26,872 nt of DNA from JBMFOH01 sp049969715 [NCBI: bacterium] (GTDB taxonomy: Bacteria > DUMJ01), in the NCBI GenBank assembly GCA_049969715.1, contig JBMFOH010000022.1:1-26872 (forward strand). Reading direction: 5' to 3'. Position numbers and translations under genes: made by a program. Position 1 is the first letter of the stretch, and the number at the start of each line of letters is the position of its first letter. Positions 9,696 to 22,394 of this stretch are shown here, in pieces. The notes beneath the pieces were generated by a model, which was not told where the DNA came from, ran no database searches, and saw nothing but the letters and a program-made list of their open reading frames with translations.

Positions 9696-9710
9696 ATATG
9701 AGGTGATTTT

Positions 9711-10067
9711 ATGAAGCTAAAGGAATTAAAAGAGATAGTAGATGCTAAGGTGCTTTATGGGGAGTTTAATCTAGAAAAAGAGGTAAGTTCTTTTTATGCT
9801 TCTGATTTAATGAGTGATATCCTGGCTACTGCAAAGGAATCTGGGATTCTTATTACCGCAATGGTCCAGCCACAGGTTATAAGGACTGTCCAGATGCTTG
9901 ACCTTATAGCAATTATATTTGTAGGAGGGAAGTGCCCTCCCGAAGAGACATTAAGGCTGGCTAGAGAGGCAGAGATACCTATTCTAGTTACCAAGTACTC
10001 TATGTTTGAGACATGCGGCAAGATATATATGAGGATAAATGAAACAGATAGAAAAGGAATTTTATAG
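9711..10067 (+). CDS. DRTGG-domain protein, first copy
   Basis: This 118-residue protein resembles the small DRTGG-domain proteins (Pfam DRTGG) found beside bifurcating hydrogenase genes in Clostridia and Thermotogae. Its recognisable stretch is YASDLMSDILATA followed by a hydrophobic alternating segment (LITAMVQPQVIRT, LDLIAIIFVGGK) and a final CGKIY. The biochemical role of the domain is unknown; regulation or ligand sensing is likely. GAGGTGAT lies just ahead of the ATG. The gene overlaps the next CBS/ATPase gene by 29 nt. A second, related copy lies at 12179-12514, also ending TLCGKIYELG. Confidence 0.8.
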   Translation: MKLKELKEIVDAKVLYGEFNLEKEVSSFYASDLMSDILATAKESGILITAMVQPQVIRTVQMLDLIAIIFVGGKCPPEETLRLAREAEIPILVTKYSMFETCGKIYMRINETDRKGIL

Positions 10068-10908
10068 TCTATTAAAACTGCCTGTTACTGTAATAATGAA
10101 CGCAAATATGCCTAAGGTATTACCTGATCGTAAGATAACTCAGGTAAGGGAGATATTAAGGATAAACCAGTTAGATGGTGTAGCAATTACTGATGAAACA
10201 GGAAAACTTGTGGGTATAGTTACTATGTATGACCTTCTAAAGAGTATAGAAGAGAATAAAAAAGAAATGTGTGTTCAGCAGGTTATGACAAAGGATGTAG
10301 TTACTCTATCGCCAAATCATACCCTTGCCGATGCTATTGAATACTTTAGAGTCTATGGATATGGTAGATTTCCAGTTGTAGATGGAGATGGTAACTTCCT
10401 TGGGATGGTAACTCCTTTTGATATAATAATAAGATTACCTGTTCTTAAGGAAGAGAAGGAAGAGGTCAAAGAGAAGGTTATAAAGTTAGAGTTTTCCGTG
10501 GAGGGAGGAGATTTTATAAATGGTGGAGAGGGTTCTAGTAAGCTAAAGAGATATCTTCAACAGCTAGGTCTTTCTAGTTCCATCATAAGAAGGGCTGCAG
10601 TGGCTAGTTATGAGATGGAGATGAATATCGTAATTCATGCCTATAGAGGTAAGTTGATAGCAGAGATCTCTTCAGATAAGATAAAAATAAGGGCTGTAGA
10701 TGAAGGCCCAGGGATAGAAGATATAGAGAAGGCAAAACAGCCTGGCTATTCTACTGCTCCTCCTAAGGCGAGGGAACTTGGTTTTGGTGCAGGTATGGGA
10801 CTTTCTAATATAATGAGTTGTTCGGATTATTTTGATATAAAAAGCACTGTAGGGGTAGGAACAGAGGTAACATCTATTATCTATATAAAAGATGAAAAGC
10901 GGGGATAA
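10039..10908 (+). CDS. CBS-pair plus GHKL (anti-sigma-type) ATPase regulatory protein
   Basis: The N-terminal half (about 22-133) has two CBS repeats, which usually bind adenosine nucleotides: DGVAITDETGKLVGIVTMYDLL and FPVVDGDGNFLGMVTPFDII. After an acidic linker, residues about 150-289 form a histidine-kinase-like ATPase fold: N box near YEMEMNIVIHA (191-201), G1 DEGPGI (221-226), G2 GFGAGMGLSN (248-257). There is no phospho-accepting histidine domain, so an anti-sigma-factor-like kinase or ATP-sensing switch is more likely than a classical sensor kinase. The start at 10039 is supported by GAGG at 10031-10034 and lies inside the preceding gene. Homologues typically sit beside HydS and hydABC genes. 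Confidence 0.83.
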   Translation: MKQIEKEFYSLLKLPVTVIMNANMPKVLPDRKITQVREILRINQLDGVAITDETGKLVGIVTMYDLLKSIEENKKEMCVQQVMTKDVVTLSPNHTLADAIEYFRVYGYGRFPVVDGDGNFLGMVTPFDIIIRLPVLKEEKEEVKEKVIKLEFSVEGGDFINGGEGSSKLKRYLQQLGLSSSIIRRAAVASYEMEMNIVIHAYRGKLIAEISSDKIKIRAVDEGPGIEDIEKAKQPGYSTAPPKARELGFGAGMGLSNIMSCSDYFDIKSTVGVGTEVTSIIYIKDEKRG

Positions 10909-10911
10909 ATT

Positions 10912-12177
10912 ATGAGTATGATAAGGATAAATAGAGAGCTATGCAAAGGCTGTGTCAATTGTATCAGAGTTTGTCCTACTGAAGCCCTTAGAGTGAGGAA
11001 TAATAAGGCAGTTATCCTTGAAGACAGATGTATAGATTGTGGAGAGTGTATTACTACCTGCCCTGATCATGCTATAGAAGCTATCTTAGAGGGTATAGAG
11101 AATATAGCCTCTTACAGATATAAGATTGCCCTTATAAGCTCTGTAGTATATGCCCAGTTTGGTTTAGAGATATCTCCCTATGCGATAAGAGAAGCAATAA
11201 AAGGGCTTGGTTTTGATGCCACTATGGATGTGTCTTTTGGAGCTGAGGCTTCTATATCCTTTTTACAGGAACTTTTAAAGAATAATCCTGACAAGGTTTA
11301 TATATCTTCTATGTGTCCTTCAGTAGTAAAACTTATCCAACTAAAGTATCCATCTCTTGTAGAAAATCTTGCCCCGGTAGCTTCTATAGAGGAAATAGCA
11401 GCAAGATACATTAGAGAAGAGGCTATTTCTAAGGGATATAGGGAAGAGGATATAGGGGTGTTTCTTATTACCCCCTGTACAGCTAAAATAGCAGATATAA
11501 AGAAAGGTAGAGGTTTTTCATATATAAATGGAGCTATTAGTGTCTCTGAAATATATAGGCATCTCATAAAGAGGCTTCCTTTAGTGAAAGAAGGACCTAA
11601 GGAACCAGTATTTGGTAGAGGAATAAGCTGGGTGAGAGATGGAGGGGAGTCACGGCATTTACAGATACTAAATTATCTAGTAGTTGATGGGGTAAAGAAT
11701 GTATTGAGAGTACTTGATGACCTGGAATTGGGGAAACTGAGAGGTCTGAATTTTATAGAGGGGAGGATGTGCAGTGGAGGATGTGTGGGAGGTCCGCTCA
11801 ATGTGCAAAATCCATATCTGGCTAGAGTTAAGATAAGAATGTTAGAGGACTCCTACCCTCAGACAATAGATAATTCTATCTATGAATCGTTAAAAGCTAA
11901 AGGATACTTCAAAAAGAGCCAGTATAAACCACAGGATGAGCTACTTAAACTAGGAGAGGATATAAGTGATTCTATTAATAAGATGAGGCAGATTGAATCT
12001 ATCCTAGAGGAGCTCCCTGGGATAGATTGTGGTTCTTGTGGGGCACCTAACTGTAGGGCTTTAGCTGAAGATATAGTGAAAGGAGAGGCTAAGATGACAG
12101 ACTGTATCTTTAAATTGAAGGAAAATATTGAAGAATATGCAAAGAGCCTACTTAAAATAGTAAGAGAGGAAAAATAA
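10912..12177 (+). CDS. HydS-like, putatively sensory [FeFe]-hydrogenase-family protein with C-terminal 4Fe-4S domain
   Basis: The N-terminus has two [4Fe-4S] ferredoxin motifs (Cys 11/14/17/21 and 40/43/46/50). The middle is an iron-hydrogenase large-subunit-like domain keeping the four H-cluster Cys: SSMCPS (C135), TPCTAK (C189) and MCSGGCVGG (C287, C291). In catalytic enzymes the first motif is TSCCP; here the proton-relay Cys is Met134, and the second motif lacks the usual Met and Glu. This matches putative sensory HydS-type enzymes rather than H2-producing ones. Residues about 360-410 form an Fe-S domain (CGSC...C...C at 373, 376, 381, 398) of the type also found in RnfB. No PAS domain is seen. 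Soluble; start ATG 10912, with ATG 10918 as an alternative. Confidence 0.82.
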   Translation: MSMIRINRELCKGCVNCIRVCPTEALRVRNNKAVILEDRCIDCGECITTCPDHAIEAILEGIENIASYRYKIALISSVVYAQFGLEISPYAIREAIKGLGFDATMDVSFGAEASISFLQELLKNNPDKVYISSMCPSVVKLIQLKYPSLVENLAPVASIEEIAARYIREEAISKGYREEDIGVFLITPCTAKIADIKKGRGFSYINGAISVSEIYRHLIKRLPLVKEGPKEPVFGRGISWVRDGGESRHLQILNYLVVDGVKNVLRVLDDLELGKLRGLNFIEGRMCSGGCVGGPLNVQNPYLARVKIRMLEDSYPQTIDNSIYESLKAKGYFKKSQYKPQDELLKLGEDISDSINKMRQIESILEELPGIDCGSCGAPNCRALAEDIVKGEAKMTDCIFKLKENIEEYAKSLLKIVREEK

Positions 12178-12178
12178 G

Positions 12179-12514
12179 ATGACTATAAAAGATTTATCAG
12201 TAGCATTATCCTTAAAGAATCTTGGAAACAGTGAAGACCTAGAGAGGACTCCAACAGGAGGATACGTTGGAGACCTCTTAAGTAATGTAATGAGGTTTGC
12301 TAAGGAGGGTAATATATGGATTACTGTTCAGACCCACATAAATGTAATAGCAGTTGCTACCCTTATAGGTGTTAGTGGAATAGTTTTTGCCTGCGGAGCA
12401 GAGGTACCTCAAGAGACTGTAGAGAAGGCAAAAAGCGAGCATATCGCTCTCCTTTCTAGTGATTTAGATGCCTTTACTTTATGTGGTAAAATATATGAGT
12501 TAGGTATTAGATGA
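12179..12514 (+). CDS. DRTGG-domain protein, second copy
   Basis: This 111-residue protein is similar in plan to the one at 9711-10067: GGYVGDLLSNVM matches the YASDLMSDIL region, IWITVQTHINVIAVATLIGVSGIVFACGAEVP gives the beta-rich core in two halves, and the end is TLCGKIYELG. The two copies flank the CBS-ATPase and HydS-like genes. It starts one base after the HydS-like stop with GAGAGGA upstream, and its stop overlaps the PHP start by 4 nt (ATGA). The role is unknown; a sensory or regulatory partner of the HydS-like protein is an inference from conserved neighbourhood. Confidence 0.78.
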   Translation: MTIKDLSVALSLKNLGNSEDLERTPTGGYVGDLLSNVMRFAKEGNIWITVQTHINVIAVATLIGVSGIVFACGAEVPQETVEKAKSEHIALLSSDLDAFTLCGKIYELGIR

Positions 12515-13248
12515 ATGTTAATATAGACCTGCATATTCATACTCTTCTCTCGCCCTGTGCAGGGATAGAGATGATACCAGTGAATATAGTAAGAAAGGCT
12601 TTAGAAATGGGTGACGATATAATTGCCATTACAGACCATAATGCAGTAGGTAATATCTCTAGTGTAATAAGGGCAGGGTTGAAATACGCCCCGGATATAG
12701 TTATATTACCTGGTATTGAAATCACCTCTAGAGAAGAGGTCCATATTCTGGGGATATTCTCAACTATCGAGGATGCATATAAGATAGAAAAGGTCATCCA
12801 TAACAATCTCTCTGTCTCATATAATAAAGACTATATCTTCGACCAATTAGTAGTGGATGAGGAAGCAAACTTTCTGAGATATGAGGAACATTTTCTCTTA
12901 GGTGCCACCTCTCTTACTATAGAAGAGATAGTGGCGCTGATCCATTCTCTAGGTGGTATAGCAATACCTGCCCACATAGATAGAGAATCTTTTGGGCTTA
13001 TCTATACCCTTGGTTTTTTCCCTACAGACCTCAACGTAGATGCAGTTGAGATATCTAAGTTTGCCACAAAAGAGAAGATAGTAAGTTTAAAGGAGATGTT
13101 ACCTCCAGATATGCCCATTATCTTTTCTAGTGATGCCCATTTCTTAGAAGATTTTATCAAACCTAGAACCGTGCTCTCTTTAGAGGAAAGAAGTTTTACT
13201 GCATTGAGAATGGCTTTAAGAAGCTTACACTCTTATAAGGAGGTATAG
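12511..13248 (+). CDS. PHP-domain metal-dependent phosphoesterase
   Basis: The polymerase-and-histidinol-phosphatase fold is clear from DLHIHTLLSPC (His8, His10), ITDHN (Asp42, His43), PGIEIT (Glu70), EEVHILG (His78), PAHIDR (His155) and SSDAH (Asp208, His210), which together form the metal site. Family members hydrolyse nucleotide or sugar phosphates; the substrate here is unknown. The length is 245 residues. It overlaps the DRTGG gene by 4 nt and abuts hydC. PHP proteins recur between HydS and hydC in hydrogenase loci, so a signalling phosphatase paired with the nearby GHKL ATPases is plausible but unproven. Confidence 0.88.
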   Translation: MNVNIDLHIHTLLSPCAGIEMIPVNIVRKALEMGDDIIAITDHNAVGNISSVIRAGLKYAPDIVILPGIEITSREEVHILGIFSTIEDAYKIEKVIHNNLSVSYNKDYIFDQLVVDEEANFLRYEEHFLLGATSLTIEEIVALIHSLGGIAIPAHIDRESFGLIYTLGFFPTDLNVDAVEISKFATKEKIVSLKEMLPPDMPIIFSSDAHFLEDFIKPRTVLSLEERSFTALRMALRSLHSYKEV

Positions 13249-13710
13249 ATGGACTTTCAACAGCTGAAAGAGATAAGAGAGATAATCTCTAACTGGCAGG
13301 GGAAGCCTGGAGCTTTAATGCCTGTGTTACAGGAGATACAGGAGAGGTTTGGATATCTCTCTAAGGAGGCTATGGAAGAGGTATCAAAAGGTTTGAATGT
13401 ACCTATCCCAGATGTCTATGGGGTAGCTACATTCTATCATTTCTTCTCTTTAAAACCTAAGGGAAAGTATCAGATCCAGGTATGTGAAGGTACTGCCTGT
13501 TATGTTAAGGGTGCCAAGAGGGTCTTGGAGAAATTTCAAGAGCTTCTTGGAATAAAGGAGGGGGAGGTAACTCCAGATGGGAAGTTTTCTATAGAATCTG
13601 TAAGATGCATTGGAGCTTGCAGTCATGCTCCTGCAGTTATGATAAATGGACGGGTTTATGGACGTATGAATTCTGAGAAGATACAGCAGGTGTTAAAATC
13701 ACTTAAATGA
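13249..13710 (+). CDS. hydC: NuoE-like [2Fe-2S] subunit (HydC/HndA type)
   Basis: This is a thioredoxin-fold [2Fe-2S] protein that pairs with the NuoF-like flavoprotein in complex I and bifurcating hydrogenases. A helical N-terminal region (PGALMPVLQEIQERFGYL) precedes the cluster ligands Cys79 and Cys84 (VCEGTACYVKG) and Cys120 and Cys124 (RCIGACSHAP). The length of 153 residues matches HydC. AAGGAGG at 13237-13243 sets the start, immediately after the PHP stop. It overlaps the next GHKL ATPase by 4 nt. The symbol is by homology; here the partner may be the Rnf membrane core rather than HydA. Confidence 0.92.
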   Translation: MDFQQLKEIREIISNWQGKPGALMPVLQEIQERFGYLSKEAMEEVSKGLNVPIPDVYGVATFYHFFSLKPKGKYQIQVCEGTACYVKGAKRVLEKFQELLGIKEGEVTPDGKFSIESVRCIGACSHAPAVMINGRVYGRMNSEKIQQVLKSLK

Positions 13711-14246
13711 TGGAAGAGCTTTCTCTTCATATCTTAGATATAGTAGAAAATAGTATAAGCGCAGGAGCAAGTCTTGTAGAGATCGTCCTATCTATAGATA
13801 GAAAAAAGGATGAACTTAGCCTTACTATTACTGATAATGGTAAGGGAATGGATGAAGATATGGTAAAGAACATTCGGGACCCTTTTTTTACTACTAGAAC
13901 TACCCGGAGGGTAGGATTAGGTGTCTCGTTTTTAGATGAGATATCTTACCTTACTGGTGGAAGATTAGAGATAAAGTCTACTCCTGGAAAAGGGACGGTA
14001 GTTTTGCTTAGTTTGCCACTTAGTCATCCTGATAGGCCCCCTTTGGGGGATATTGTTTCAACCCTGATGACTATCTTAGTGGCAGCTAATGATATGAGAT
14101 TTATATATAGAGAGAAAAGAGACGACAATGAGTGGGTGTTTGATTCTGCAGATGTAATTGGTGTTTCAGACCCTGTATCCTTAAAACAGATAGGAGATGT
14201 ATTGTATAATAGTTACAAAGAATTTACTGGAGGTGAATTGATTTGA
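13707..14246 (+). CDS. Small GHKL (histidine-kinase-like) ATPase without phospho-accepting domain
   Basis: The protein of 178-179 residues has the histidine-kinase-type ATP site: N box LHILDIVENSISAGAS (Asn15), G1 DNGKGM (43-48) and a G2-like RRVGLGVSF (67-75). It has no dimerisation/phosphotransfer domain, no sensor domain and no membrane segment. The C-terminal 80 residues (PPLGDIVSTLMTILVAAND...) are of unknown type. Genes of this kind commonly lie between hydC and the HndB-like gene. Two starts, ATG 13707 and ATG 13710, are possible; the first overlaps the hydC stop as ATGA. An anti-sigma-like or complex-modifying function is inference only. Confidence 0.85.
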   Translation: MMEELSLHILDIVENSISAGASLVEIVLSIDRKKDELSLTITDNGKGMDEDMVKNIRDPFFTTRTTRRVGLGVSFLDEISYLTGGRLEIKSTPGKGTVVLLSLPLSHPDRPPLGDIVSTLMTILVAANDMRFIYREKRDDNEWVFDSADVIGVSDPVSLKQIGDVLYNSYKEFTGGELI

Positions 14247-14614
14247 AATCTTTAGATGATTTAAAACGTATAAGAGAACAGGCTCAGGCTCAGATAAGGA
14301 TAAGAACCCAAGAGGCAAACACTAAGATAATAGTTGGAATGGGAACCTGTGGTATAGCAGCTGGGGCAAGGGATACACTTATGGCTATTCTAGATGAATT
14401 GGCTAAGAGAAATATACAGGATGTAGTAGTTACTCAAACAGGCTGTATAGGATTGTGTGAGTATGAGCCATTGGTAAGTGTAGTAAAGCCAGGTCAACCA
14501 AAGATTATGTATATGAAGGTAAATCCAGAAAGAGCTAGACAGATAATTGCTAGTCATATAGTAAATGACCAGATTATAAATGAGTGGGTATTGAGTAGAG
14601 AAGAAGGGGCGTAA
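14243..14614 (+). CDS. Thioredoxin-like [2Fe-2S] ferredoxin (HndB-like)
   Basis: This small subunit resembles HndB of NAD(P)-linked hydrogenases, with the characteristic GMGTCGIAAGARDTL and VVVTQTGCIGLCEYEPLV. Visible cluster ligands are Cys36, Cys68 and Cys72; the family usually shows only these three in the motif. It is 123 residues long with a helical N-terminal extension rich in Gln and Arg. The start is TTG at 14243, backed by a strong GGAGGTG at 14229-14235, and overlaps the ATPase stop by 4 nt. It probably passes electrons within the NADH-oxidising module with HydB and HydC. Confidence 0.88.
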   Translation: MKSLDDLKRIREQAQAQIRIRTQEANTKIIVGMGTCGIAAGARDTLMAILDELAKRNIQDVVVTQTGCIGLCEYEPLVSVVKPGQPKIMYMKVNPERARQIIASHIVNDQIINEWVLSREEGA

Positions 14615-14615
14615 G

Positions 14616-16439
14616 ATGGCTATTGTTAGAGCTAATGTCCTTGTATGTGCAGGAAGTGCTTGTGTTTCTTCTGGGGCTTATAGTTTTAGGGATGCCCTTA
14701 TAAATGCACTAGAGAAAGCTGGAATCAGAGAAGAGGTAAATGTGGTAGATACAGGATGTGTAGGTACCTGTGCGTTAGGGCCAGTGGCAATAGTTTATCC
14801 CGAGGGTATATTCTATGTCCGTCTAAAGCCTGAAGATGCAGAAACTATTGTAAATGAGCACCTTCTGAAGGGTAGAATAGTGAATAGACTCCTCTATCAA
14901 GGTCCTATCTCTAAAGAGGTTTTTCCTTCTTTCTCTGAGATAGATTTTATATCAAAGCAAAAGCGTATAGTGTTGAGAAATATGGGTATTATAAATCCTG
15001 AAAACATAGATGAATATATAGCAAGGGAAGGGTATCAGGCGTTGGCAAAGGCGCTTAGTATGACACCAGAAGAGGTAATAGATACTGTTAAAAGGTCAGG
15101 GCTAAGGGGTAGAGGAGGAGCTGGTTTCCCTACAGGGATAAAATGGGAGCTTACTCGTAAGGCAAAGGGGAGTCCTAAATACGTTGTATGTAACGGAGAC
15201 GAGGGAGACCCAGGTGCATTTATGGATAGAAGTGTATTAGAGGGTGACCCTCACAGTGTGATTGAAGGGATGATGATTGCAGGTTATGCTATAGGTGCCA
15301 GCAAGGGATTTTTCTATGTAAGGGCAGAATACCCCCTTGCTATAGAGAGGCTTAAACTAGCTCTTAATCAAGCAAGAGAGTACGGACTTATTGGTGAAAA
15401 TATACTAGGTACTGGCTTCTCCTTTGATATAGAGCTAAGGAGAGGTTCAGGTGCATTTGTATGTGGTGAAGAGACTGCATTGATAGCTTCTATAGAGGGA
15501 CGTAGGGGTGAACCTAGACCTAGACCTCCATATCCTGCAAACAAAGGACTATGGGAAAATCCTACAGTTATAAATAATGTAGAGACCCTTGCAAATATAG
15601 CTCCAATTATCCTTAATGGAGCAGAGTGGTTCAGTAGCATAGGTACAGAGAAGAGCAAGGGAACAAAGGTCTTTGCCCTTGCAGGTAAGATTGCCAATAC
15701 TGGACTTATCGAGGTTCCATTTGGGATTACCTTGAGAGAGATTATCTTTGATGTTGGAGGAGGGATACCTTCAGGTAAGAAGTTTAAGGCTGCCCAGTTA
15801 GGAGGACCTTCTGGAGGATGTATTCCAGCAGAACACCTAGATACACCTCTAGACTATGAATCTTTAAAAGAGCTAGGAGCTATAGTCGGTTCTGGTGGCT
15901 TGATAGTTATGGATGAAGATAATTGTATGGTAGATGTGGCTAGATTCTTCCTTGAGTTTACTCAAAGCGAATCCTGTGGTAAGTGCCCTCCCTGTAGGGT
16001 TGGAACAAGGAAGATGTTGGACATCCTCGAGAGGATTGTAAATGGAGAAGGGGAAGAGGGGGATATAGAGCGTCTTATAGAGTTAGGTAATGAAATAAAA
16101 CGGGATTCTTTATGTGGGCTTGGACAGACTGCACCAAATCCAGTGTTAAGTACAATAAAGTATTTCAGAGAAGAGTATGAATCCCATATAAAGGAAAAGA
16201 AATGTCCTGCCAAGTCATGCAGAGCTCTGATTGCTTTTCAGGTTATACCAGATAAATGTAAGGGATGTGGCATATGTGCACGTGTATGTCCTGTAGGCGC
16301 TGCTCAGGGAAAACCCAGAGAGATTCATACTATAGACATAGACTTATGTATAAAGTGTGGTGACTGTTTTGTTAGATGTCCTTTTGGAGCGATAGAAAAG
16401 GTAGACTTAGTTTCTCTTCTTGAGAAAGTAGAAAGGTGA
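14616..16439 (+). CDS. hydB: NuoF-like NADH/FMN Fe-S subunit (HydB/HndC type)
   Basis: This 607-residue multidomain flavoprotein is the NADH-binding subunit of electron-bifurcating hydrogenase-type complexes. The N-terminal thioredoxin-like [2Fe-2S] domain has Cys11, 16, 48, 52. The NuoF core has the FMN/NADH motif GRGGAGFPTG (165-174), CNGDEGDPGAF and GEETALI (284-290), then an SLBB region. A [4Fe-4S] site uses SCGKCPPC (454, 457, 460) and Cys500, and two C-terminal ferredoxin motifs have Cys 548/551/554/558 and 578/581/584/588. In hydrogenase loci hydA normally follows. Here rnfD follows after 4 nt. The protein occupies the position of RnfC, which also carries a NuoF-like fold and SLBB domain, so it may supply the NADH site of an Rnf-like complex. 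Confidence 0.92.
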   Translation: MAIVRANVLVCAGSACVSSGAYSFRDALINALEKAGIREEVNVVDTGCVGTCALGPVAIVYPEGIFYVRLKPEDAETIVNEHLLKGRIVNRLLYQGPISKEVFPSFSEIDFISKQKRIVLRNMGIINPENIDEYIAREGYQALAKALSMTPEEVIDTVKRSGLRGRGGAGFPTGIKWELTRKAKGSPKYVVCNGDEGDPGAFMDRSVLEGDPHSVIEGMMIAGYAIGASKGFFYVRAEYPLAIERLKLALNQAREYGLIGENILGTGFSFDIELRRGSGAFVCGEETALIASIEGRRGEPRPRPPYPANKGLWENPTVINNVETLANIAPIILNGAEWFSSIGTEKSKGTKVFALAGKIANTGLIEVPFGITLREIIFDVGGGIPSGKKFKAAQLGGPSGGCIPAEHLDTPLDYESLKELGAIVGSGGLIVMDEDNCMVDVARFFLEFTQSESCGKCPPCRVGTRKMLDILERIVNGEGEEGDIERLIELGNEIKRDSLCGLGQTAPNPVLSTIKYFREEYESHIKEKKCPAKSCRALIAFQVIPDKCKGCGICARVCPVGAAQGKPREIHTIDIDLCIKCGDCFVRCPFGAIEKVDLVSLLEKVER

Positions 16440-16443
16440 TTAT

Positions 16444-17373
16444 ATGTCTATAGAGCAGAAACTTTATGTTTCTAGTCCTCCTCATATAAGAACCGATCAA
16501 GACGCTAGGTATTTGATGCGTCAGGTTTTAATTGGATTGATACCTGCCACTATAGCAGGACTTATATTCTTTAATTGGCATGCATTGGTTGTTCTAGTTC
16601 TCTCTATTGTTAGCTCTATTTTCTGGGAAAAGATAGTAATGTATATCAAGAAAGAGAAGAGAGAACTTGATGGGAGTGAGATCGTTACAGGTTTACTCCT
16701 TGGACTAAACCTGTCTCCCCTTGTTCCCTGGTGGATGCCAATCGTTGGAACATTTATAGCTATAGTGCTTGCCAAGGAGCTTTTTGGGGGTATTGGCTTT
16801 AATATATTTAACCCTGCTCTGATTTCCAGGGCATTCCTGTTAGCTTCTTGGCCTATGGAAATGACCGCTTGGATGGCTCCTTTCAATGGTGTAAGCCAAG
16901 CTACTCCTCTAAATCTTCTAAAACTTCAAGGAATATCCACTTCATATCTGACGCTCTTCCTGGGGAATAGAGGGGGATGCATAGGGGAGACATCTACTCT
17001 AGCACTCTTGATAGGTGCTGGATATCTCTTCTATAAAGGAGTAATAGATTGGAGAACCCCCATCCCCTATGTGCTTACAGTAGGGATATTAAGTTCAATC
17101 CTTGGTCGAGACCCTATATTTAATATGATGGCTGGAGGTCTTATCCTTGGGGCATTCTTTATGGCTACTGATTATACTACTACACCTATAACAAAACTTG
17201 GGAGAATAGTCTTTGGTGTGGGATGTGGAGTAATTACAACCCTTGTAAGATTCTATGGTGGATATCCAGAGGGTGTTTCATATAGTATTCTATTTATGAA
17301 TGCATTGACCCCCCTTATAGATAAATGGACAGTCCCAAAACCCTTTGGTTATAAGAAGGGAGTGAGAGCATGA
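16444..17373 (+). CDS. rnfD: RnfD, membrane FMN subunit of Rnf complex
   Basis: RnfD/NqrB-family integral membrane protein, 309 residues, with about eight to ten hydrophobic segments (for example 29-43, 47-60, 97-111, and several after 165). It carries the covalent flavin motif NGVSQATPLN, with Thr154 as the expected FMN attachment site. The opening SPPHIR and the segment GGIGFNIFNPAL are typical of the family. AGGTGA lies upstream of the ATG at 16444. It is preceded by hydB instead of rnfC. Its stop overlaps rnfE by 4 nt (ATGA), so rnfG, usually found between D and E, is absent here. Confidence 0.93.
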   Translation: MSIEQKLYVSSPPHIRTDQDARYLMRQVLIGLIPATIAGLIFFNWHALVVLVLSIVSSIFWEKIVMYIKKEKRELDGSEIVTGLLLGLNLSPLVPWWMPIVGTFIAIVLAKELFGGIGFNIFNPALISRAFLLASWPMEMTAWMAPFNGVSQATPLNLLKLQGISTSYLTLFLGNRGGCIGETSTLALLIGAGYLFYKGVIDWRTPIPYVLTVGILSSILGRDPIFNMMAGGLILGAFFMATDYTTTPITKLGRIVFGVGCGVITTLVRFYGGYPEGVSYSILFMNALTPLIDKWTVPKPFGYKKGVRA

Positions 17374-17963
17374 ACTTTTTTAAGGCATTTGTAAATGGTT
17401 TGTGGAAGGAAAATCCTATCCTTGTTTTGATGATAGGACTCTGTCCTACCCTTGCTGTTTCTACTGCAGCAATGAATGGGGTATATATGGGTTTAGCTGC
17501 TACATTTGTCCTAGTAGGTTCTAACTTTATGATATCTCTCATTAGAAGATGGGTTCCAGACCAGATACGTATCCCTATATTCATCACTATCATTGCTACC
17601 TTCGTTACTATAGTAGATATGGTTATGCATGCCTATGCTCCTGATATGTATAAGATACTTGGTATATTTATTCCTCTTATAGTAGTGAACTGTATAATCT
17701 TAGGAAGGGCAGAGGCATTTGCCTATCAAAATGGGGTAATAGCTTCTATTGGTGACGGATTAGGAATGGGGTTGGGTTTTACCCTCATACTTCTTATACT
17801 GGGAGGTATAAGAGAACTCTTAGGTAATGGAACCCTTTTTGGGTTCCAGGTGATGCCTCTATCTTATAAGCCTATACTCCTTATGATCCTTCCTCCTGGA
17901 GCATTTCTCACGATTGGATTCTTGCAGGCATTCCAAAGGTATAAGGGAGGTAATTCCAAATGA
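17370..17963 (+). CDS. rnfE: RnfE, membrane [2Fe-2S]-coordinating subunit
   Basis: RnfE is a six-helix membrane protein that, with RnfA, holds an intramembrane Fe-S cluster. The conserved Cys are present: GLCPTLAVS (Cys25) and VVNCIILGRAEAFA (Cys108). The length of 197 residues is standard for the short, non-fused form. It starts in the stop codon of rnfD and ends overlapping rnfA by 4 nt. The retained Cys indicate a functional electron path rather than a decayed gene. It is distinguished from RnfA by GRAEAFA and the GIRELLGNGTLFG loop. Confidence 0.93.
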   Translation: MNFFKAFVNGLWKENPILVLMIGLCPTLAVSTAAMNGVYMGLAATFVLVGSNFMISLIRRWVPDQIRIPIFITIIATFVTIVDMVMHAYAPDMYKILGIFIPLIVVNCIILGRAEAFAYQNGVIASIGDGLGMGLGFTLILLILGGIRELLGNGTLFGFQVMPLSYKPILLMILPPGAFLTIGFLQAFQRYKGGNSK

Positions 17964-18544
17964 TTACCCATCTGGCACTTATATTTATCGGGGCACTCTT
18001 AGTAAATAATATCTTACTTATAAGATTTATAGCTCTATGCTCATTCTTTGGGGTTTCAGATTCAATGGGGACATCTATAGGCATGGGTATGGCGGTAGTA
18101 TTTGTTATGGTACTTGCATCCTCTGCTAGCTGGATCCTATGGCATTTTGTACTCTTCCCATTGCATCTAGAGTACCTGGAGATATCAGGATTTATTCTTA
18201 CTATAGCAGCATTAGTCCAGTTTGTTGAATTATTCCTCAAGAAGAATAGCCCTTCACTCTATAGGTCTATGGGGATATATTTACCACTAATTACTACAAA
18301 CTGTGCTATATTAGCAGTGACACTTATAAATGTAATAAATAATTTTAATTTTATAGAAGCTATCATCTATGCTATAGGAGTAGGTGGAGGATACACACTT
18401 GCTATTGTGATGTTTGCAGGGGTGAGAGAACGTATCGGTGTAGCTCCTGTTCCCAAGATATTAAAGGGCTACCCTATAGCGTTTATTACTGCAAGTTTAA
18501 TGTCTTTAGCATTTTTAGGATTTAAAGGACTATTTGGTCTATAG
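17960..18544 (+). CDS. rnfA: RnfA, membrane [2Fe-2S]-coordinating subunit
   Basis: This is the inverted-topology homologue and partner of RnfE. Signature elements are NNILLIRFIALCSFFGVS (Cys27), LITTNCAILAV (Cys115) and the C-terminal GVRERI. It has 194 residues with about six membrane helices. GGGAGGTAA lies ahead of the ATG, which overlaps the rnfE stop. In canonical rnf operons rnfB follows rnfA; here a TRAP-like gene follows after 13 nt. No RnfB-, RnfG- or RnfC-type gene is present anywhere in the window. Confidence 0.94.
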   Translation: MITHLALIFIGALLVNNILLIRFIALCSFFGVSDSMGTSIGMGMAVVFVMVLASSASWILWHFVLFPLHLEYLEISGFILTIAALVQFVELFLKKNSPSLYRSMGIYLPLITTNCAILAVTLINVINNFNFIEAIIYAIGVGGGYTLAIVMFAGVRERIGVAPVPKILKGYPIAFITASLMSLAFLGFKGLFGL

Positions 18545-18557
18545 AGGAGATGAGAAT

Positions 18558-18794
18558 ATGAATGAGAATACCGATTGGAGATTAGCTGATTTTGTAGCAA
18601 TAAAAGCCCTTGAAGATGGTGTTACTATAATAGGGCTTACTAGAGGTAAGGAGACAAGGATTAGTCATACTGAAAAGTTAGATGCAGGCCAGGTGATGCT
18701 TGCCCAATTTACAGAGAATGTTGCAGCTATGAAGATAGAGGGTAGAGTAGAGATATATACCAAATTTGGTAAGATAACTGGTGGAGATATCTAA
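18558..18794 (+). CDS. mtrB: TRAP (trp RNA-binding attenuation protein)-like protein, MtrB family
   Basis: The 78-residue protein aligns without gaps to Bacillus MtrB over DFVAIKALEDGVTIIGLTRG, then SHTEKLDAGQ and LAQFTENVAAMKIEG. TRAP forms an 11-subunit ring that, with bound tryptophan, wraps RNA carrying (G/U)AG triplets. In B. subtilis numbering, Trp-contacting Thr25, Gly27, Thr30, Gln47 and Thr49 are kept, as are RNA-binding Lys37 and Lys56, but Arg58 is Glu. The start ATG 18558 has GAGGAG 8 nt upstream; an in-frame TTG at 18534 would overlap rnfA and is less likely. It lies in the rnf run, 13 nt after rnfA and 18 nt before glmS, with no trp genes nearby. Binding targets are unknown. Confidence 0.88.
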   Translation: MNENTDWRLADFVAIKALEDGVTIIGLTRGKETRISHTEKLDAGQVMLAQFTENVAAMKIEGRVEIYTKFGKITGGDI

Positions 18795-18812
18795 AGGAGG
18801 ATGAATAGATAG

Positions 18813-20642
18813 ATGTGCGGTATTGTTGGATATTTAGGAAGGAAAAAGGCTGTCCCTATTCTTATAGATAATCTTAAGAGATTGGAATATAGAGGTTATG
18901 ATTCTGCTGGAGTAGCTGTAGTAGAAGATTCTAAACTTATAGTAGAAAAGAGCGTAGGGAAACTTTCTAAGCTTGAATCGATAGTAACCCCTCTTGGGCT
19001 TCCTAGCACTATGGGAATTGGACATACAAGATGGGCCACCCATGGCAAGCCATCTGATATAAATGCTCATCCTCATACAGATTGTAAGGGAGAGATAGCT
19101 CTCGTACATAATGGTATCATAGAAAATTATCTAGAGCTGAAGTCTGCCCTTATAAGTCGTGGCCATAAATTTTCTTCTGAGACAGATACAGAGGTTATAG
19201 TCCATCTTGTAGAGGAACATTATAGGGGAGACCTATTGGAAGCGGTAAGAGAAGCTATTAAGGAGTTGGTGGGTTCATATGCTATAGCAGTAGTTACATC
19301 TAAAGAGCCTAATCGTATTGTTGTGGCAAGAAAGGATAGTCCTCTCATCTTAGGTATTGGAGAAGGAGAATATTTTGTTGCCTCTGATATCCCAGCTGTC
19401 CTCAACTATACTCGTAATATATGGATCCTAGAAAATGGAGAGATAGGAGATGTAACTCCTTCAGGTTGTACAGTTTATGATTCAGATGGGAATAAGAAGA
19501 AAAAGGAAACAATGGTAGTATCTTGGGATATCTCTATGGCAGAGAAGGGTGGTTATCCACACTTTATGATAAAGGAGATCCATGAACAGCCGAACGCTCT
19601 AAGAGAGACCTTTAGAGGAAGGGTGAATAGTGAAGGGCTAGTTAAACTAGAATTTAAAAATATTACTGAAGATGATTTGAGAAGAATAAAGAAGCTCTAT
19701 TTTGTTGCCTGTGGAACAGCTTATCATGCAGGCTTAGTTGGGAAGTATCTTATTGAAAGGTTTGTTCGTATCCCTGTAGAGGCAGATATAGCTAGTGAGT
19801 TTAGATATCGCGATCCGATCTTTGAGAAAGATAGTTTAATGGTAGTGATAAGTCAATCAGGTGAGACTGCTGATACCTTGGCTGCCCTACGTATGGCAAA
19901 GGAGAATGAAGTAAAAGTTATAGCTATATGCAATGTGGTAGGAAGTTCTATCGCTAGAGAATCTGATGAGGTCCTATATACATATGCAGGACCTGAGATT
20001 GCTGTAGCTTCTACAAAGGCTTATACATCTCAACTTATGGTGATATATCTATTTATGCTTCTCTTAGCAAAGGTAAGGAATACCATTCCTTCTGATAAGA
20101 TAAAGGAATTTGTGGAGGACCTAAGAAAGATTCCAGATGTAGCCTCTAGGGTCTTGGAGAAATTAGAACCAGCTATTATTGACCTGTCTAAAAGATACTA
20201 TAAGGCTCATGATGTCTTTTTTATCGGTAGAGGATTAGACTATGCCCTTAGCTTAGAGGGAGCTCTAAAGCTTAAGGAGATCTCCTATATCCATGCTGAA
20301 GCCTATGCTGCTGGAGAATTGAAACATGGTCCTCTCTCTCTACTTGAAAGTGGAGTCCCAGTTGTGTGTCTTGCTACTCAGGGTTACCTCTTAGATAAGA
20401 TGATAAGTAATATAAAAGAAGTGAAGGCAAGAGAAGCTACTGCTCTAGGTTTTGGTATTGAAGGGGACGAAGATTTAAAAAATGTATGTGATGAGACATT
20501 CTATATACCAAAAATAAATGATATATATTCCTGTGTAATTACAGTGATCCCTCTACAGTTACTTGCCTACTATATGGCGCGAGAGAGGGGATGCGATATA
20601 GACCAACCAAGAAACTTAGCAAAGTCTGTTACTGTAGAGTAA
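18813..20642 (+). CDS. glmS: Glutamine-fructose-6-phosphate aminotransferase (isomerizing)
   Basis: GlmS makes glucosamine-6-phosphate for peptidoglycan and lipid precursors. Cys2 (MCGIVGYLG) is the glutaminase nucleophile after Met removal; RLEYRGYDSAG and GHTRWATHG complete the N-terminal amidotransferase. Two SIS sugar-binding domains follow (SQSGETADTL at about 348-357; GRGLDYALSLEGALKLKE), ending in the diagnostic DQPRNLAKSVTVE. The length of 609 residues is typical. AAAGGAGG at 18793-18800 lies 12 nt before ATG 18813, a rather long spacing; a three-codon ATG...TAG frame fills the gap. No glmS ribozyme fits in the 18-nt spacer. A strong terminator follows. Confidence 0.97.
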   Translation: MCGIVGYLGRKKAVPILIDNLKRLEYRGYDSAGVAVVEDSKLIVEKSVGKLSKLESIVTPLGLPSTMGIGHTRWATHGKPSDINAHPHTDCKGEIALVHNGIIENYLELKSALISRGHKFSSETDTEVIVHLVEEHYRGDLLEAVREAIKELVGSYAIAVVTSKEPNRIVVARKDSPLILGIGEGEYFVASDIPAVLNYTRNIWILENGEIGDVTPSGCTVYDSDGNKKKKETMVVSWDISMAEKGGYPHFMIKEIHEQPNALRETFRGRVNSEGLVKLEFKNITEDDLRRIKKLYFVACGTAYHAGLVGKYLIERFVRIPVEADIASEFRYRDPIFEKDSLMVVISQSGETADTLAALRMAKENEVKVIAICNVVGSSIARESDEVLYTYAGPEIAVASTKAYTSQLMVIYLFMLLLAKVRNTIPSDKIKEFVEDLRKIPDVASRVLEKLEPAIIDLSKRYYKAHDVFFIGRGLDYALSLEGALKLKEISYIHAEAYAAGELKHGPLSLLESGVPVVCLATQGYLLDKMISNIKEVKAREATALGFGIEGDEDLKNVCDETFYIPKINDIYSCVITVIPLQLLAYYMARERGCDIDQPRNLAKSVTVE

Positions 20643-20655
20643 TCTTCAAGAGAGA

Positions 20656-20690
20656 AAGGGGTGGGCTTTAAAGCCCACCCCTTATTTTTT
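20656..20690 (+). terminator. Terminator between convergent glmS and hisG
   Basis: AAGGGGTGGGCTTT (20656-20669) and AAAGCCCACCCCTT (20670-20683) form a perfect 14-bp inverted repeat, with the central bases making the loop, followed by a run of six T (20685-20690) on the plus strand. It ends the long plus-strand run. On the minus strand the hairpin is followed by a weaker T/C-rich stretch, so it may also act for the hisG operon. The hisG stop codon (20668-20670) lies in the middle of the palindrome. Confidence 0.93.
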
Positions 20691-21291
20691 CTAGAAAGTT
20701 TTTTATCTCTTTTACCTTTATATGTAAACTTGCCTTATTCGCTATAAGACGTGCAGTAGATGGTGCTATCTCTTCCCATATCTTTAGGTTATTCTCTTTT
20801 AAGGTTCTCCCTGTAGAAACGATATCAACAATGATATCTGCCAGTCCTGTTGTAGGGGCTAGCTCTATAGACCCACTCAGATATAGAATCTCTATGGAGA
20901 TCCCTTTCTTGCTAAAGAATTCACTTGTTATTTTTGGATATTTTGTAGCTACCCTTAGGATTCCCTCCTTGATTAATACATCTTCTGGGCGTTTTTCTGC
21001 TGGTATGGCAGCTACTAGTTTACATCTGCCAAAACCTAGGTCGTAGAGCTCATAGACAGGAGGAGATTGTTCTAAAAGGATATCCTTCCCTATTATACCT
21101 AGGTCTCCTATTCCATACTCTACATATATGGGTACGTCTTTGGGCTTACAGACAAGAATCTTAATATCTTCTGTAGAGAATGATAATCTACGACTCTGTA
21201 ATATCTCACCAGGAAAAGATACATTGGTGCCTTTAAAGAACCTTACACAATCTTCTAATAATCTTCCAGAGGGTAATACTAAAGCTAACAT
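20668..21291 (-). CDS. hisG: ATP phosphoribosyltransferase catalytic subunit, short form
   Basis: HisG catalyses the first step of histidine synthesis, joining PRPP and ATP. The length of 207 residues identifies the short form that lacks the C-terminal regulatory domain and needs HisZ. The phosphoribosyl-binding loop is DIVSTGRTL (156-164), followed by ENNL; GDLGIIGKD and FGRCKLVAAIP are typical of the family. The ATG overlaps the hisZ end by 7 nt. The last codons (IRGGL, stop) lie inside the shared terminator hairpin. No other histidine biosynthesis gene is in the window. Confidence 0.95.
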   Translation of the reverse strand: MLALVLPSGRLLEDCVRFFKGTNVSFPGEILQSRRLSFSTEDIKILVCKPKDVPIYVEYGIGDLGIIGKDILLEQSPPVYELYDLGFGRCKLVAAIPAEKRPEDVLIKEGILRVATKYPKITSEFFSKKGISIEILYLSGSIELAPTTGLADIIVDIVSTGRTLKENNLKIWEEIAPSTARLIANKASLHIKVKEIKNFLEKIRGGL

Positions 21292-22394
21292 AAGAATACC
21301 TTCTTCTTACCTTTCAGTGAATTTAACATCTCTTCATTTTGGCAGTAAAATATCCCTACCTTGAAACCATTCTCCCTCTCTCTTTGTGCAAGTTTCATAG
21401 CCTCTTTAAATTTACCATTAGAGTAGCCAATGACAATATCTGGAATAGACTCTGTGCTTTCAATCTTTGATGCCACCCTTTCTATCCCTATTGCAAAACC
21501 TGTGGCTGGAAGAGATAACCCAAATTTTTCTAAAAGTCCATCGTATCTCCCACCTCCAACTACAGGTAGTCCTAGTTCTTCTAGATATCCTTCGATAGTA
21601 ATCCCTGTATAGTATTCAAAATCTCTCACCATACCAAGATTTACCTTTGTCATATTGTATCCTAATTCGTCTAGGTCAGTGATGAACTGAGCTAACTGAC
21701 TAAGAGGCGCTTCTAAATCTGGTAGATATTTTATAAACCGAGACGCCTCTTCTAAAATCTCTTTTCCTCCGCTTAGAAAGGGCAGTGCCTCTATAAACTC
21801 AAGAACATTCCTATCTTCTATGGAATCTTTTATCGTTACAAAGTCGCCATTCTTGATATAATCTATTATAGAAGTACCGGTAGCTTTTACTATTGATAGT
21901 AGTATCTTGGCATGTCCTATCTCTATGTGGATGGGAAGACCCAAGGATCTAAATATCTCTTCAATGATAAGGACTACTTCAATATCCCCGGTTATAGAGC
22001 CATCCCCTATGAGCTCTATCCCTCCTTGAGTAAACTCCTTTTGAACCAATGGTTGTGATGATATGTTTCTAAAGACCCTTCCTATGTAGTAGAACCTCAA
22101 AGGATTTTTTATCTCTCTAAATCTGGTCGTTACTAATCTAGCTATAGAGGTAGTAAATTCTGGCCTCATAGAGAGAAGTGCTCCATCTCTATCTATCACC
22201 CTATAGAAGACTGTCTCATCCTTTAGATTGGTACCTGTAGATATAATCTCTGCGTATTCTAAGGTAGGGGTAATAACTTCTCTATAGCCAAAGGACTCAC
22301 AGACCCTTCTTAAGGCATTCTCTACAGTCCGTATCTTCTCTACCTCATTGGGTAGATAATCTCTAAAACCTGGAGGAGGACTTAGATAACTCAT
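21285..22394 (-). CDS. hisZ: HisZ, regulatory subunit of ATP phosphoribosyltransferase
   Basis: HisZ is a histidyl-tRNA-synthetase-like protein that activates short HisG and mediates feedback by histidine. Class II synthetase elements include PPPGFRDYLP (6-15), RPEFTTSIAR (motif 2 region) and GGGRYDGLLEKFG with GFAIGIERV (motif 3 region). The 369-residue length is shorter than HisS (about 420), and the anticodon-binding domain is reduced to a remnant. Together with an adjacent 207-residue HisG, this makes HisZ much more likely than HisS. The start overlaps the upstream RACE-type gene by 4 nt. Confidence 0.93.
   Translation of the reverse strand: MSYLSPPPGFRDYLPNEVEKIRTVENALRRVCESFGYREVITPTLEYAEIISTGTNLKDETVFYRVIDRDGALLSMRPEFTTSIARLVTTRFREIKNPLRFYYIGRVFRNISSQPLVQKEFTQGGIELIGDGSITGDIEVVLIIEEIFRSLGLPIHIEIGHAKILLSIVKATGTSIIDYIKNGDFVTIKDSIEDRNVLEFIEALPFLSGGKEILEEASRFIKYLPDLEAPLSQLAQFITDLDELGYNMTKVNLGMVRDFEYYTGITIEGYLEELGLPVVGGGRYDGLLEKFGLSLPATGFAIGIERVASKIESTESIPDIVIGYSNGKFKEAMKLAQRERENGFKVGIFYCQNEEMLNSLKGKKKVFLC

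What the first reader, a model, noticed from the sequence alone, without database searches (positions are those of the whole stretch)
13249..18544. Hybrid locus: HydBC-type NADH module joined to an RnfDEA membrane core
In typical rnf operons the order is C-D-G-E-A-B. Here the position of rnfC is taken by hydC, a GHKL ATPase, an HndB-like gene and hydB, with only 4 nt between hydB and rnfD. In hydrogenase loci hydA would follow hydB; it does not. HydB and RnfC share the NuoF-like FMN/SLBB fold, so HydBC could replace RnfC as the NADH-reactive part. This suggests a membrane-bound, ion-translocating or bifurcating NADH/ferredoxin oxidoreductase not matching standard Rnf, Nqr or HydABC. Gene order and motifs are seen; the complex itself is inference.
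Basis: partly seen in the sequence, partly recalled or inferred. Interest (0 to 1): 0.8.

Follow-up and report, generated by a model that had tools for sequence, protein, structure and literature searches.

The report
Pared-down hydrogenase-Rnf gene locus
A bacterial gene cluster that in related bacteria encodes two separate energy enzymes, a hydrogenase and the Rnf ion pump, here lacks four genes (hydA, rnfC, rnfG and rnfB), leaving the NADH-handling half of one right beside the membrane half of the other, which may or may not mean that they now form a single new complex.

Summary
hydC, a GHKL ATPase gene, an HndB-like gene and hydB run straight into rnfD, rnfE and rnfA, with 4 nt between hydB and rnfD. 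The window holds no hydA, rnfC, rnfG or rnfB, nor pieces of them.

The window looks like a reduced version of it. Direct hydB–rnfD contact occurred in 0 of 73 other rnf loci; rnfC preceded rnfD in 73 of 73.

All conserved cluster cysteines and the RnfD flavin site are kept, and codon usage is even across the junction, so decay or chimeric assembly looks unlikely.

Best reading: a BfuA-less "Rnf-Bfu", in which HydBC takes RnfC's place on RnfDEA. Nearly as likely: the missing subunits are encoded elsewhere. The organism's genome is not held, so this could not be decided.

The parts
9711..10067 (+). DRTGG-domain protein, start of the hyd part of the super-locus
   Evidence: PF07085 E 1e-8; same place in several relatives
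10039..10908 (+). CBS pair plus HATPase (anti-sigma/serine-kinase-like)
   Evidence: PF00571 E 2e-26, PF13581 E 9e-8
10912..12177 (+). HydS-like [FeFe]-hydrogenase paralogue: 2x[4Fe-4S], H-cluster domain, C-terminal PF04060 FeS domain; keeps 16 of 16 conserved Cys. Its L1 motif reads SSMCP, in the 15 aligned relatives S-S/A/T-S/A/T-CP; the usual first Cys of this motif (TSCCP, recalled) is missing in all of them
   Evidence: PF02906 E 7e-31, PF04060 E 1e-14; alignment; sensory role inferred
12179..12514 (+). second DRTGG-domain protein
   Evidence: PF07085 26.0 bits, cut-off 25.2
12511..13248 (+). PHP-domain phosphoesterase-like protein
   Evidence: PF02811 27.7 bits, cut-off 26.4
13249..13710 (+). 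HydC / BfuC (NuoE-like [2Fe-2S] subunit)
   Evidence: PF01257 E 2e-56; 4 of 4 conserved Cys
13707..14246 (+). GHKL ATPase that accompanies hydC-hydB in relatives
   Evidence: PF02518 E 6e-19; synteny
14243..14614 (+). HndB-like 2Fe-2S ferredoxin
   Evidence: NF041613 E 4e-10, under its cut-off; synteny
14616..16439 (+). HydB / BfuB (FMN, NADH and FeS-cluster subunit); C-terminus 11 residues longer than in the 11 relatives shown
   Evidence: PF01512, PF10589, Fer4; C-terminus; 22 of 22 conserved Cys; best PDB match 7t2r_B
16425..16446 (+). hydB-rnfD junction: ribosome-binding-like AAGGTGA overlaps the hydB stop, 4 nt spacer, rnfD ATG
   Evidence: sequence
16444..17373 (+). RnfD with the covalent-FMN motif (ATPL, Thr154), the riboflavin-contacting Asn123 and Asp243, and the N-terminal PHI docking arm
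   Evidence: TIGR01946 313 bits; alignment to A. woodii RnfD
17370..17963 (+). RnfE (Cys25, Cys108; R67, L103, V106, N107, E115 kept; gating L22 is I here)
   Evidence: TIGR01948 279 bits
17960..18544 (+). RnfA (Cys27, Cys115 = A. woodii C25, C113; equivalents of E88, Y105, L108, T110, T111, N112 kept; those of D64, T73, E126 not)
   Evidence: TIGR01943 245 bits
18558..18794 (+). mtrB (TRAP, tryptophan attenuation protein), at the place where rnfB would be expected
   Evidence: PF02081 E 4e-32, NF009724 110 bits, cut-off 117
20656..20683 (+). terminator-like hairpin (12 bp stem) after glmS
   Evidence: 16 terminator-like sites found in 9500-21500, 8.2 expected; this is the longest stem

Best explanation
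Shown: compared with the hyd-rnf super-locus of relatives, this locus lacks hydA and rnfC (neighbours there), rnfG and rnfB, and keeps intact genes for HydBC and RnfDEA in the same order. That it arose by loss is the simplest inference. Inferred: HydBC (the BfuBC core that handles NAD(H) and ferredoxin) and RnfDEA work as one membrane complex, an Rnf-type member of the Bfu family without BfuA. HydB, the homologue of RnfC, would dock on RnfD, possibly by the retained RnfD N-terminal arm. It would pass electrons between the riboflavin of RnfD and its own FeS/FMN chain, so that ferredoxin and NADH are both handled at HydBC while RnfA/E/D move electrons and an ion (probably Na+) across the membrane. 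Because the RnfA/E cluster ligands and both RnfD flavin sites are retained, an extracytosolic flavin carrier (RnfG or a similar FMN-binding protein) encoded elsewhere is probably still needed.
For: Gene order and 4-nt junction. Super-locus in relatives: HydB lies 3.2-4.5 kb upstream of RnfD in 19 of the 24 genomes where I paired the two within 30 kb on one strand; the 11 of these 19 that I fetched all have hydA and rnfC in that gap. In the 16 loci with HydA as the next profiled gene before rnfC the two are 97-1280 nt apart, so hyd and rnf need not be one transcript there, while here hydB and rnfD are tightly coupled. The slot after hydB can be swapped: in one genome (G139, L083) a formate dehydrogenase catalytic subunit with a BfuA-type N-terminus stands there instead of hydA, upstream of rnf. 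The partners missing on the two sides, HydA for HydBC and RnfC for RnfD, are neighbours in relatives and leave halves that could fit, HydB being homologous to RnfC. No decay: 22 of 22 HydB, 4 of 4 HydC, 2 of 2 RnfE and 2 of 2 RnfA conserved Cys kept, RnfD FMN motif kept; departures at columns at least 90% conserved are 4 of 68 (RnfD, 13th most deviant of 64 rows), 1 of 53 (RnfE, 45th of 64) and 4 of 47 (RnfA, 5th of 58). Codon usage z -1.7 to +0.2 for hydB, rnfD, rnfE and rnfA. Precedents: Bfu Type 4 (BfuA-less) and membrane-bound Mbh-Bfu and Nuo-Bfu, all predicted (PMC9304861, passages).
Against: Direct hydB-rnfD contact was seen in 0 of 73 other rnf loci and in none of the 24 HydB-RnfD pairs, so there is no conservation behind it. 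The AE1 cluster ligands and most Na+-path residues of RnfA/E are intact; in known Rnf they need RnfB as electron donor and RnfG as shuttle, neither encoded here. RnfD keeps the arm (PH invariant in the other RnfD rows aligned) that in C. tetanomorphum Rnf is buried in RnfC (PMC9588780, passage), which fits an RnfC encoded elsewhere equally well. HydB shows no clear sign of a changed partner: window-specific changes are spread over the protein; at columns at least 90% conserved it is the second most deviant of 11 rows (23 of 316). No genome, expression data or structure of a complex is available.
Confidence: 0.4

Rival explanations
1. Scattered genes: HydBC pairs with a HydA, and RnfDEA with RnfC, RnfG and RnfB, encoded elsewhere in the genome. 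The two enzymes stay ordinary and the locus is only a broken-up super-operon.
For: Many sampled genomes encode several HydB-type proteins: the match column often reads 2 or 3 at E <= 1e-150, 3 being the most that were scored. Some have more than one RnfD match. RnfD/E/A keep the cofactor ligands and most of the Na+-path residues examined. rnfG is missing from the cluster in 10 of 73 other loci, plus one RnfD-RnfG fusion; six of those genomes were searched for FMN_bind and all six have such proteins in other places. G028 shows that this super-locus does come apart: rnfCDGEAB follows HydS-like and DRTGG without hydCBA, while one HydB match is reported for that genome.
Against: In 73 of 73 other loci rnfC stays next to rnfD (351 nt at most), and rnfB was called in 68; the other five are four contig ends and one partial, sub-threshold ORF. 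A detached rnfC or rnfB was not seen in these loci. At least two or three separate relocations are needed.
Confidence: 0.38
2. Remnant: the hydrogenase and Rnf are being lost and HydBC and RnfDEA are leftovers without a joint function.
For: Four core genes are missing; the HydS-like protein is unusually diverged (24 of 105 otherwise invariant columns changed, the most of 14 non-redundant rows).
Against: All seven genes from hydC to rnfA are full-length, closely packed and keep cofactor ligands and most conserved columns; no pieces of the missing genes were found.
Confidence: 0.1
3. Artefact: a chimeric contig or collapsed assembly at the hydB-rnfD, rnfD-rnfE and rnfA-mtrB junctions.
For: No whole genome is held, so the window may be a metagenome record (inference); no second copy of the arrangement was found.
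Against: Several clean junctions with overlapping or closely coupled start codons, and homogeneous GC and codon usage on both sides.
Confidence: 0.05
4. As in the best explanation, but the HydS-like protein also replaces RnfB: its C-terminal FeS domain resembles the FeS segment near the start of RnfB that holds the mobile B8 cluster, and its N-terminal 2x[4Fe-4S] domain also resembles RnfB, so it could feed the RnfA/E cluster.
For: HydS-like residues 364-398 match A. woodii RnfB 41-75 and residues 11-59 match C. tetanomorphum RnfB; the RnfB profile scores it at 73.9 bits. That RnfB 41-75 is the B8 domain is inferred from its place next to the membrane helix.
Against: Relatives that do have rnfB carry the same HydS-like protein with the same domains; no membrane anchor is apparent by eye (no predictor was run).
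Confidence: 0.05

Closest known systems
Bfu family (HydABC-type bifurcating enzymes), Type 4, BfuA-less; Rub-Bfu is the only named example in the passages seen (PMC9304861, abstract and passages)
   Same: BfuBC core with all conserved cluster cysteines; no BfuA next to it; an unrelated redox partner encoded directly after BfuB
   Different: The partner here is a membrane ion-pump core (RnfDEA), not rubrerythrin; the paper's only mention of Rnf is in a reference title
Mbh-Bfu and Nuo-Bfu (predicted membrane-bound Bfu complexes, PMC9304861, passages)
   Same: A BfuBC core joined by gene order to an ion-translocating membrane module
   Different: They keep BfuA and use NiFe-hydrogenase or complex I modules, not Rnf
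Rnf complex, RnfABCDGE (A. woodii 9eri, C. tetanomorphum 7zc6)
   Same: RnfD, RnfE and RnfA homologues with the cofactor ligands and most Na+-path residues examined
   Different: RnfC, RnfG and RnfB not encoded in the window; HydBC stands where RnfC would be
hydABC-rnfCDGEAB super-locus of Bacillota (seen here; no description noticed in the listings)
   Same: Same order of the genes that remain, from DRTGG to rnfA
   Different: hydA, rnfC, rnfG and rnfB missing
NQR/RNF-like partial systems (PMC8238504, passages)
   Same: Part of the Rnf core with another NADH-reactive module
   Different: Those are RnfD-NqrF fusions with FMN-binding or ApbE genes nearby; no RnfG-type FMN-binding gene was found in the window; ApbE was not searched for by profile, and none is among the genes that I named

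Membership tests
Rnf complex | RnfD, RnfE and RnfA membrane core | tested here: met
   TIGR01946, TIGR01948 and TIGR01943 above cut-off
Rnf complex | AE1 [2Fe-2S] ligands (two Cys each in RnfA and RnfE) and covalent-FMN Thr in RnfD | tested here: met
   ligand roles from PMC11889175 (passages)
Rnf complex | RnfC, RnfG and RnfB encoded with the core | tested here: not met
   No match in six frames of the window; elsewhere in the genome not testable
HydABC / FeFe-Bfu hydrogenase | HydA (H-cluster catalytic subunit) after hydB | tested here: not met
   HydA follows HydB in 28 of the 30 loci L037-L066, the other two end at a contig end
Bfu family | BfuBC core with FeS-cluster cysteines and FMN/NADH site | tested here: met
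   PF01512, PF10589, PF01257; 22 of 22 and 4 of 4 conserved Cys
Bfu family, Type 4 | No BfuA homologue; unrelated partner adjacent | tested here: inconclusive
   True in the window; the rest of the genome is unknown
Bfu family | Electron bifurcation activity | not testable with these tools
   needs purified enzyme
NQR | NqrB rather than RnfD; NqrF and NqrA present | tested here: not met
   RnfD model 313 bits, NqrB model 160 bits and under its cut-off of 350; no NqrF- or NqrA-like gene beside rnfDEA. Elsewhere in the window an AcsV-like protein matches the nqrF model weakly through its 2Fe-2S domain
Single HydBC-RnfDEA complex | Conserved direct hydB-rnfD linkage in relatives | tested here: not met
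   0 of 73 rnf loci
Single HydBC-RnfDEA complex | Physical association of HydB with RnfD | not testable with these tools
   needs co-purification or complex modelling

The most novel reading that the evidence does not exclude
An ion-translocating Rnf-Bfu: the bifurcating BfuBC core has replaced both RnfC (NAD site) and RnfB (ferredoxin site) on an Rnf membrane core, with the HydS-like protein or a distant FMN-binding protein supplying the remaining electron link. NADH, ferredoxin and a membrane ion gradient would then be coupled in one enzyme without H2.
Probability: 0.3. Interest if true: 0.8.

Novelty: new variant of a known kind. Interest (0 to 1): 0.5.

Why it matters
If HydBC does replace RnfC, it would be, to my knowledge, the first Rnf driven by a bifurcating module. 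It would add a third predicted kind of membrane pump to the Bfu family, and it would suggest that anaerobes can rebuild respiratory enzymes by deleting the parts between two neighbouring operons. Even if it does not, the hydABC-rnf super-locus found around it is a gene-order hint that the bifurcating hydrogenase and Rnf are run as one unit (H2 to NADH plus ferredoxin to ion gradient) in some Bacillota, and its swappable slot after hydB can be mined for new third substrates.

Tried and rejected
Finding the organism. No whole genome is held. The genome-contig scan with RnfD gave one locus, an ordinary rnfCDGEAB. Viral contigs with RnfD and with HydB gave no relative. Order, class and phylum draws around other genomes gave no RnfD above 59% identity in the rows listed (one search's list is cut). 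ValS, sought in 80 chosen genomes, is at best 52-53% identical over nearly its whole length; higher values came only from partial matches (G218, G183). I infer a deep Bacillota lineage without a close relative among the genomes searched; its name stays unknown.

Considered and rejected. Chimeric gene set by foreign origin: codon usage is even. Misidentified NqrBDE: the Rnf models score far above the Nqr models. RnfA under relaxed constraint: with 11 non-redundant rows the window looked worst (9 of 54), but with 58 non-redundant rows it is fifth (4 of 47), so I dropped that claim; one Gly that is invariant in the others, two residues before the cluster Cys, is Ala here. Clustering of HydB changes near its first C-terminal cluster (R466K, E469D, and D451S) is suggestive only and not used. 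An RnfD tree (47 rows) left the window on a long, unplaced branch.

RnfG-less clusters: 11 of 73 loci have no separate rnfG between D and E; one of these is an RnfD-RnfG fusion. This weakens the surprise of the missing rnfG in the window.

Biases of the census: 80 loci were given, 7 without rnfD were dropped, and one duplicate (L155) was left out beforehand. Eleven of the rows (L067-L077) were chosen because HydB lies near RnfD, so the frequency of the super-locus is not a population estimate; the 0 of 73 for direct contact should not be helped by that choice. 'Next gene' in the census means next gene hit by one of nine profiles. Most of the genomes behind the 30 best RnfD loci are also in the census. 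The phylum draws overlap heavily.

Not run: structure prediction (no multimer offered; single chains would mainly confirm folds).
Full report
What is there. The window carries three tRNA genes, then on one strand tig, clpP, clpX, lon, valS, folC, DRTGG, CBS-HATPase, a HydS-like [FeFe]-hydrogenase paralogue, DRTGG, PHP, hydC, a GHKL ATPase gene, an HndB-like gene, hydB, rnfD, rnfE, rnfA, mtrB and glmS, closed by a 12-bp terminator-like hairpin at 20656-20683; hisG, hisZ, an AcsV/RACo-like gene and a phosphotriesterase-like gene follow on the other strand (clpP to folC and glmS are named from their sequence, no family search was run on them). Spacers from tig to glmS are short or negative. hydB ends at 16439, rnfD starts at 16444, and D/E and E/A overlap by 4 nt. 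A ribosome-binding-like AAGGTGA overlaps the hydB stop.

What is missing. Profiles built here from other loci for HydA, RnfC, RnfG and RnfB found no copy and no fragment in the six frames of the window. The only hits were cross-matches: HydB with RnfC at 53 bits and with RnfB at 34 bits, and the HydS-like protein with RnfB at 74 bits and with HydA at 57 bits. Whether these genes lie elsewhere cannot be asked, because no genome is held for this window.

Where it comes from. In a draw of 398 genomes from the phylum of G001 (a Bacillota MAG), 211 have an RnfD match at E <= 1e-20 and 329 a HydB match at E <= 1e-150. Pairing printed places, 24 genomes have HydB upstream of RnfD on the same strand within 30 kb, and in 19 of them the gap is 3.2-4.5 kb, just the room of hydA plus rnfC; none is smaller. 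I fetched 20 stretches. Eleven (L067-L077) show hydC, GHKL, hndB, hydB, hydA, rnfC, rnfD, (rnfG), rnfE, rnfA, rnfB in one order, behind HydS-like, DRTGG and PHP and, as far as tblastn finds them, DRTGG, CBS-HATPase and folC; six more (L078-L081, L085, L086) show most of the hyd part without rnf in the stretch; L084 has only hydC, hydB and hydA behind folC; L082 and L083 are described below. A census of 73 rnf loci from other genomes gives rnfC as the next gene before rnfD in 73 of 73 (351 nt apart at most), direct hydB-rnfD in 0 of 73, HydA as the next profiled gene before rnfC in 16 (97-1280 nt apart), no separate rnfG in 11 (one of them an RnfD-RnfG fusion), and rnfB called in 68; the other five are four contig ends and one locus with a partial, sub-threshold RnfB ORF. 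Eleven of the 73 were picked for hyd-rnf closeness. The thirty best RnfD matches, mostly of the same genomes, also all have rnfC upstream. So the window looks like a reduced form of this super-locus: hydA and rnfC (neighbours in relatives) gone, rnfG gone as in several other lineages, rnfB gone. Two other genomes show that the array is pliable. G139 has a formate dehydrogenase catalytic subunit with a BfuA-like N-terminus in the hydA slot, upstream of rnfCDEAB. G028 lacks hydCBA at the place and keeps rnfCDGEAB behind HydS-like and DRTGG, with one HydB match in the genome.

Is what remains functional? All cluster cysteines conserved in relatives are kept: HydB 22 of 22, HydC 4 of 4, HydS-like 16 of 16, RnfE 2 of 2, RnfA 2 of 2; RnfD keeps the ATPL flavin site and, by the printed alignment to A. 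woodii RnfD, the two riboflavin-contacting residues. Of the residues that PMC11889175 (passages) ties to Na+ movement or gating, RnfE R67, L103, V106, N107, E115 and RnfA E88, Y105, L108, T110, T111, N112 are kept by alignment to the A. woodii chains; RnfE L22 is I, and the outer-surface RnfA D64, T73 and E126 are F, I and N. Departures from columns at least 90% conserved are ordinary: RnfD 4 of 68 (13th most deviant of 64 rows), RnfE 1 of 53 (45th of 64), RnfA 4 of 47 (5th of 58), HydC 2 of 25 (5th of 19), HydB 23 of 316 (2nd of 11); at strictly invariant columns HydB departs in 4 of 213, fourth of 19 rows and tied with others. GC and codon usage do not change across the junction. The HydS-like protein is the exception, with 24 of 105 otherwise invariant columns changed, which would fit a change in what it senses once hydA is gone (inference).

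How it may work. In known Rnf, electrons pass from ferredoxin through RnfB to the RnfA/E cluster, RnfG, the two flavins of RnfD, and RnfC to NAD+ (PMC12174285, PMC9588780 and PMC11889175, passages). [quoted passage not shown] HydB is a homologue of RnfC, with an FMN/NuoF-like part and a C-terminal two-cluster ferredoxin domain. Placing HydBC on RnfD in RnfC's stead would give an Rnf-type, BfuA-less Bfu enzyme. Shown: gene order, intactness, homology, synteny with the super-locus. Inferred: loss as its origin, docking, electron path, ion coupling. The weak point is that RnfA/E and RnfD are kept as if RnfB and RnfG still existed; a flavin shuttle at least should be encoded elsewhere. I give this reading 0.4 and the scattered-genes reading 0.38.

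Comparison with what is known. Schut and colleagues (PMC9304861) name four Bfu types; Type 4 lacks BfuA and has Rub-Bfu as the only named case in the passages seen; Mbh-Bfu and Nuo-Bfu are predicted membrane members. Rnf occurs in that paper only in a reference title. PMC8238504 (passages) describes partial NQR/RNF-like systems as RnfD-NqrF fusions. PMC11406978 (passages) discusses Rnf and BfuABC of Hydrogenedentota as separate enzymes. Eight paper searches showed no title or abstract describing a HydBC-RnfDEA locus or the hydABC-rnf super-locus; for most listed papers I saw only the listing, and the full texts may hold more. In PMC5113046 (S. schinkii, passages) rnfCDGEAB and the [FeFe] hydrogenase clusters carry unrelated locus-tag ranges. 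The library lacks most subscription journals.

Verdict. A real and well-formed gene arrangement, a new variant of known systems, best explained as a pared-down hyd-rnf super-locus. Whether it encodes a hybrid complex is open and directly testable with the organism's genome.

Noticed in passing
L067-L077 (for example L067:2876-16615): A super-locus of HydS-like, DRTGG/PHP/CBS genes, hydCBA and rnfCDGEAB (or rnfCDEAB) in a number of Bacillota, suggesting joint regulation of bifurcating hydrogenase and Rnf.
   Followed up: yes
L083:1-10447 (genome G139): The hydA slot before rnfCDEAB is taken by a formate dehydrogenase catalytic subunit with a BfuA-like N-terminus, followed by mobA- and fdhD-like genes (names recalled from the sequence); hydB and fdh are broken in this contig.
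   Followed up: partly
L072, L073, L074, L076, L077, L083, L131, L134, L145, L157: rnfCDEAB-type clusters without rnfG between D and E (L131 ends before rnfB). The six whose genomes were searched (L072-L074, L076, L077, L083) all have other FMN_bind proteins, several with two or three FMN_bind domains in one open frame.
   Followed up: partly
L123:5441-7060: A 539-aa RnfD protein whose C-terminal part reads like RnfG (fusion; judged by eye).
   Followed up: no
L114:3-2321: Second HydB copy fused to an NfnB/GltD-like FAD domain (recalled from the sequence), followed by HydA and rnfCDGEAB.
   Followed up: no
window 10912-12177: The HydS-like protein ends in a PF04060 FeS domain that matches RnfB (residues 364-398 against A. 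woodii RnfB 41-75) and is unusually diverged in this window.
   Followed up: partly
window 18558-18794: mtrB (TRAP) sits directly after rnfA and before glmS. TRAP genes were found in 20 of 41 genomes searched; their neighbours were not examined.
   Followed up: no
window 22391-24196 (-): AcsV/RACo-like corrinoid activation protein (NF040756, 481 bits, below its cut-off of 800) beside a phosphotriesterase-like gene, hinting at corrinoid methyl metabolism.
   Followed up: no
window 25285-26774: A DUF1156 gene (partial match to anti-phage-associated family NF042963) stops after 347 aa, and an IS66-like transposase piece on the minus strand begins there, apparently an insertion.
   Followed up: partly
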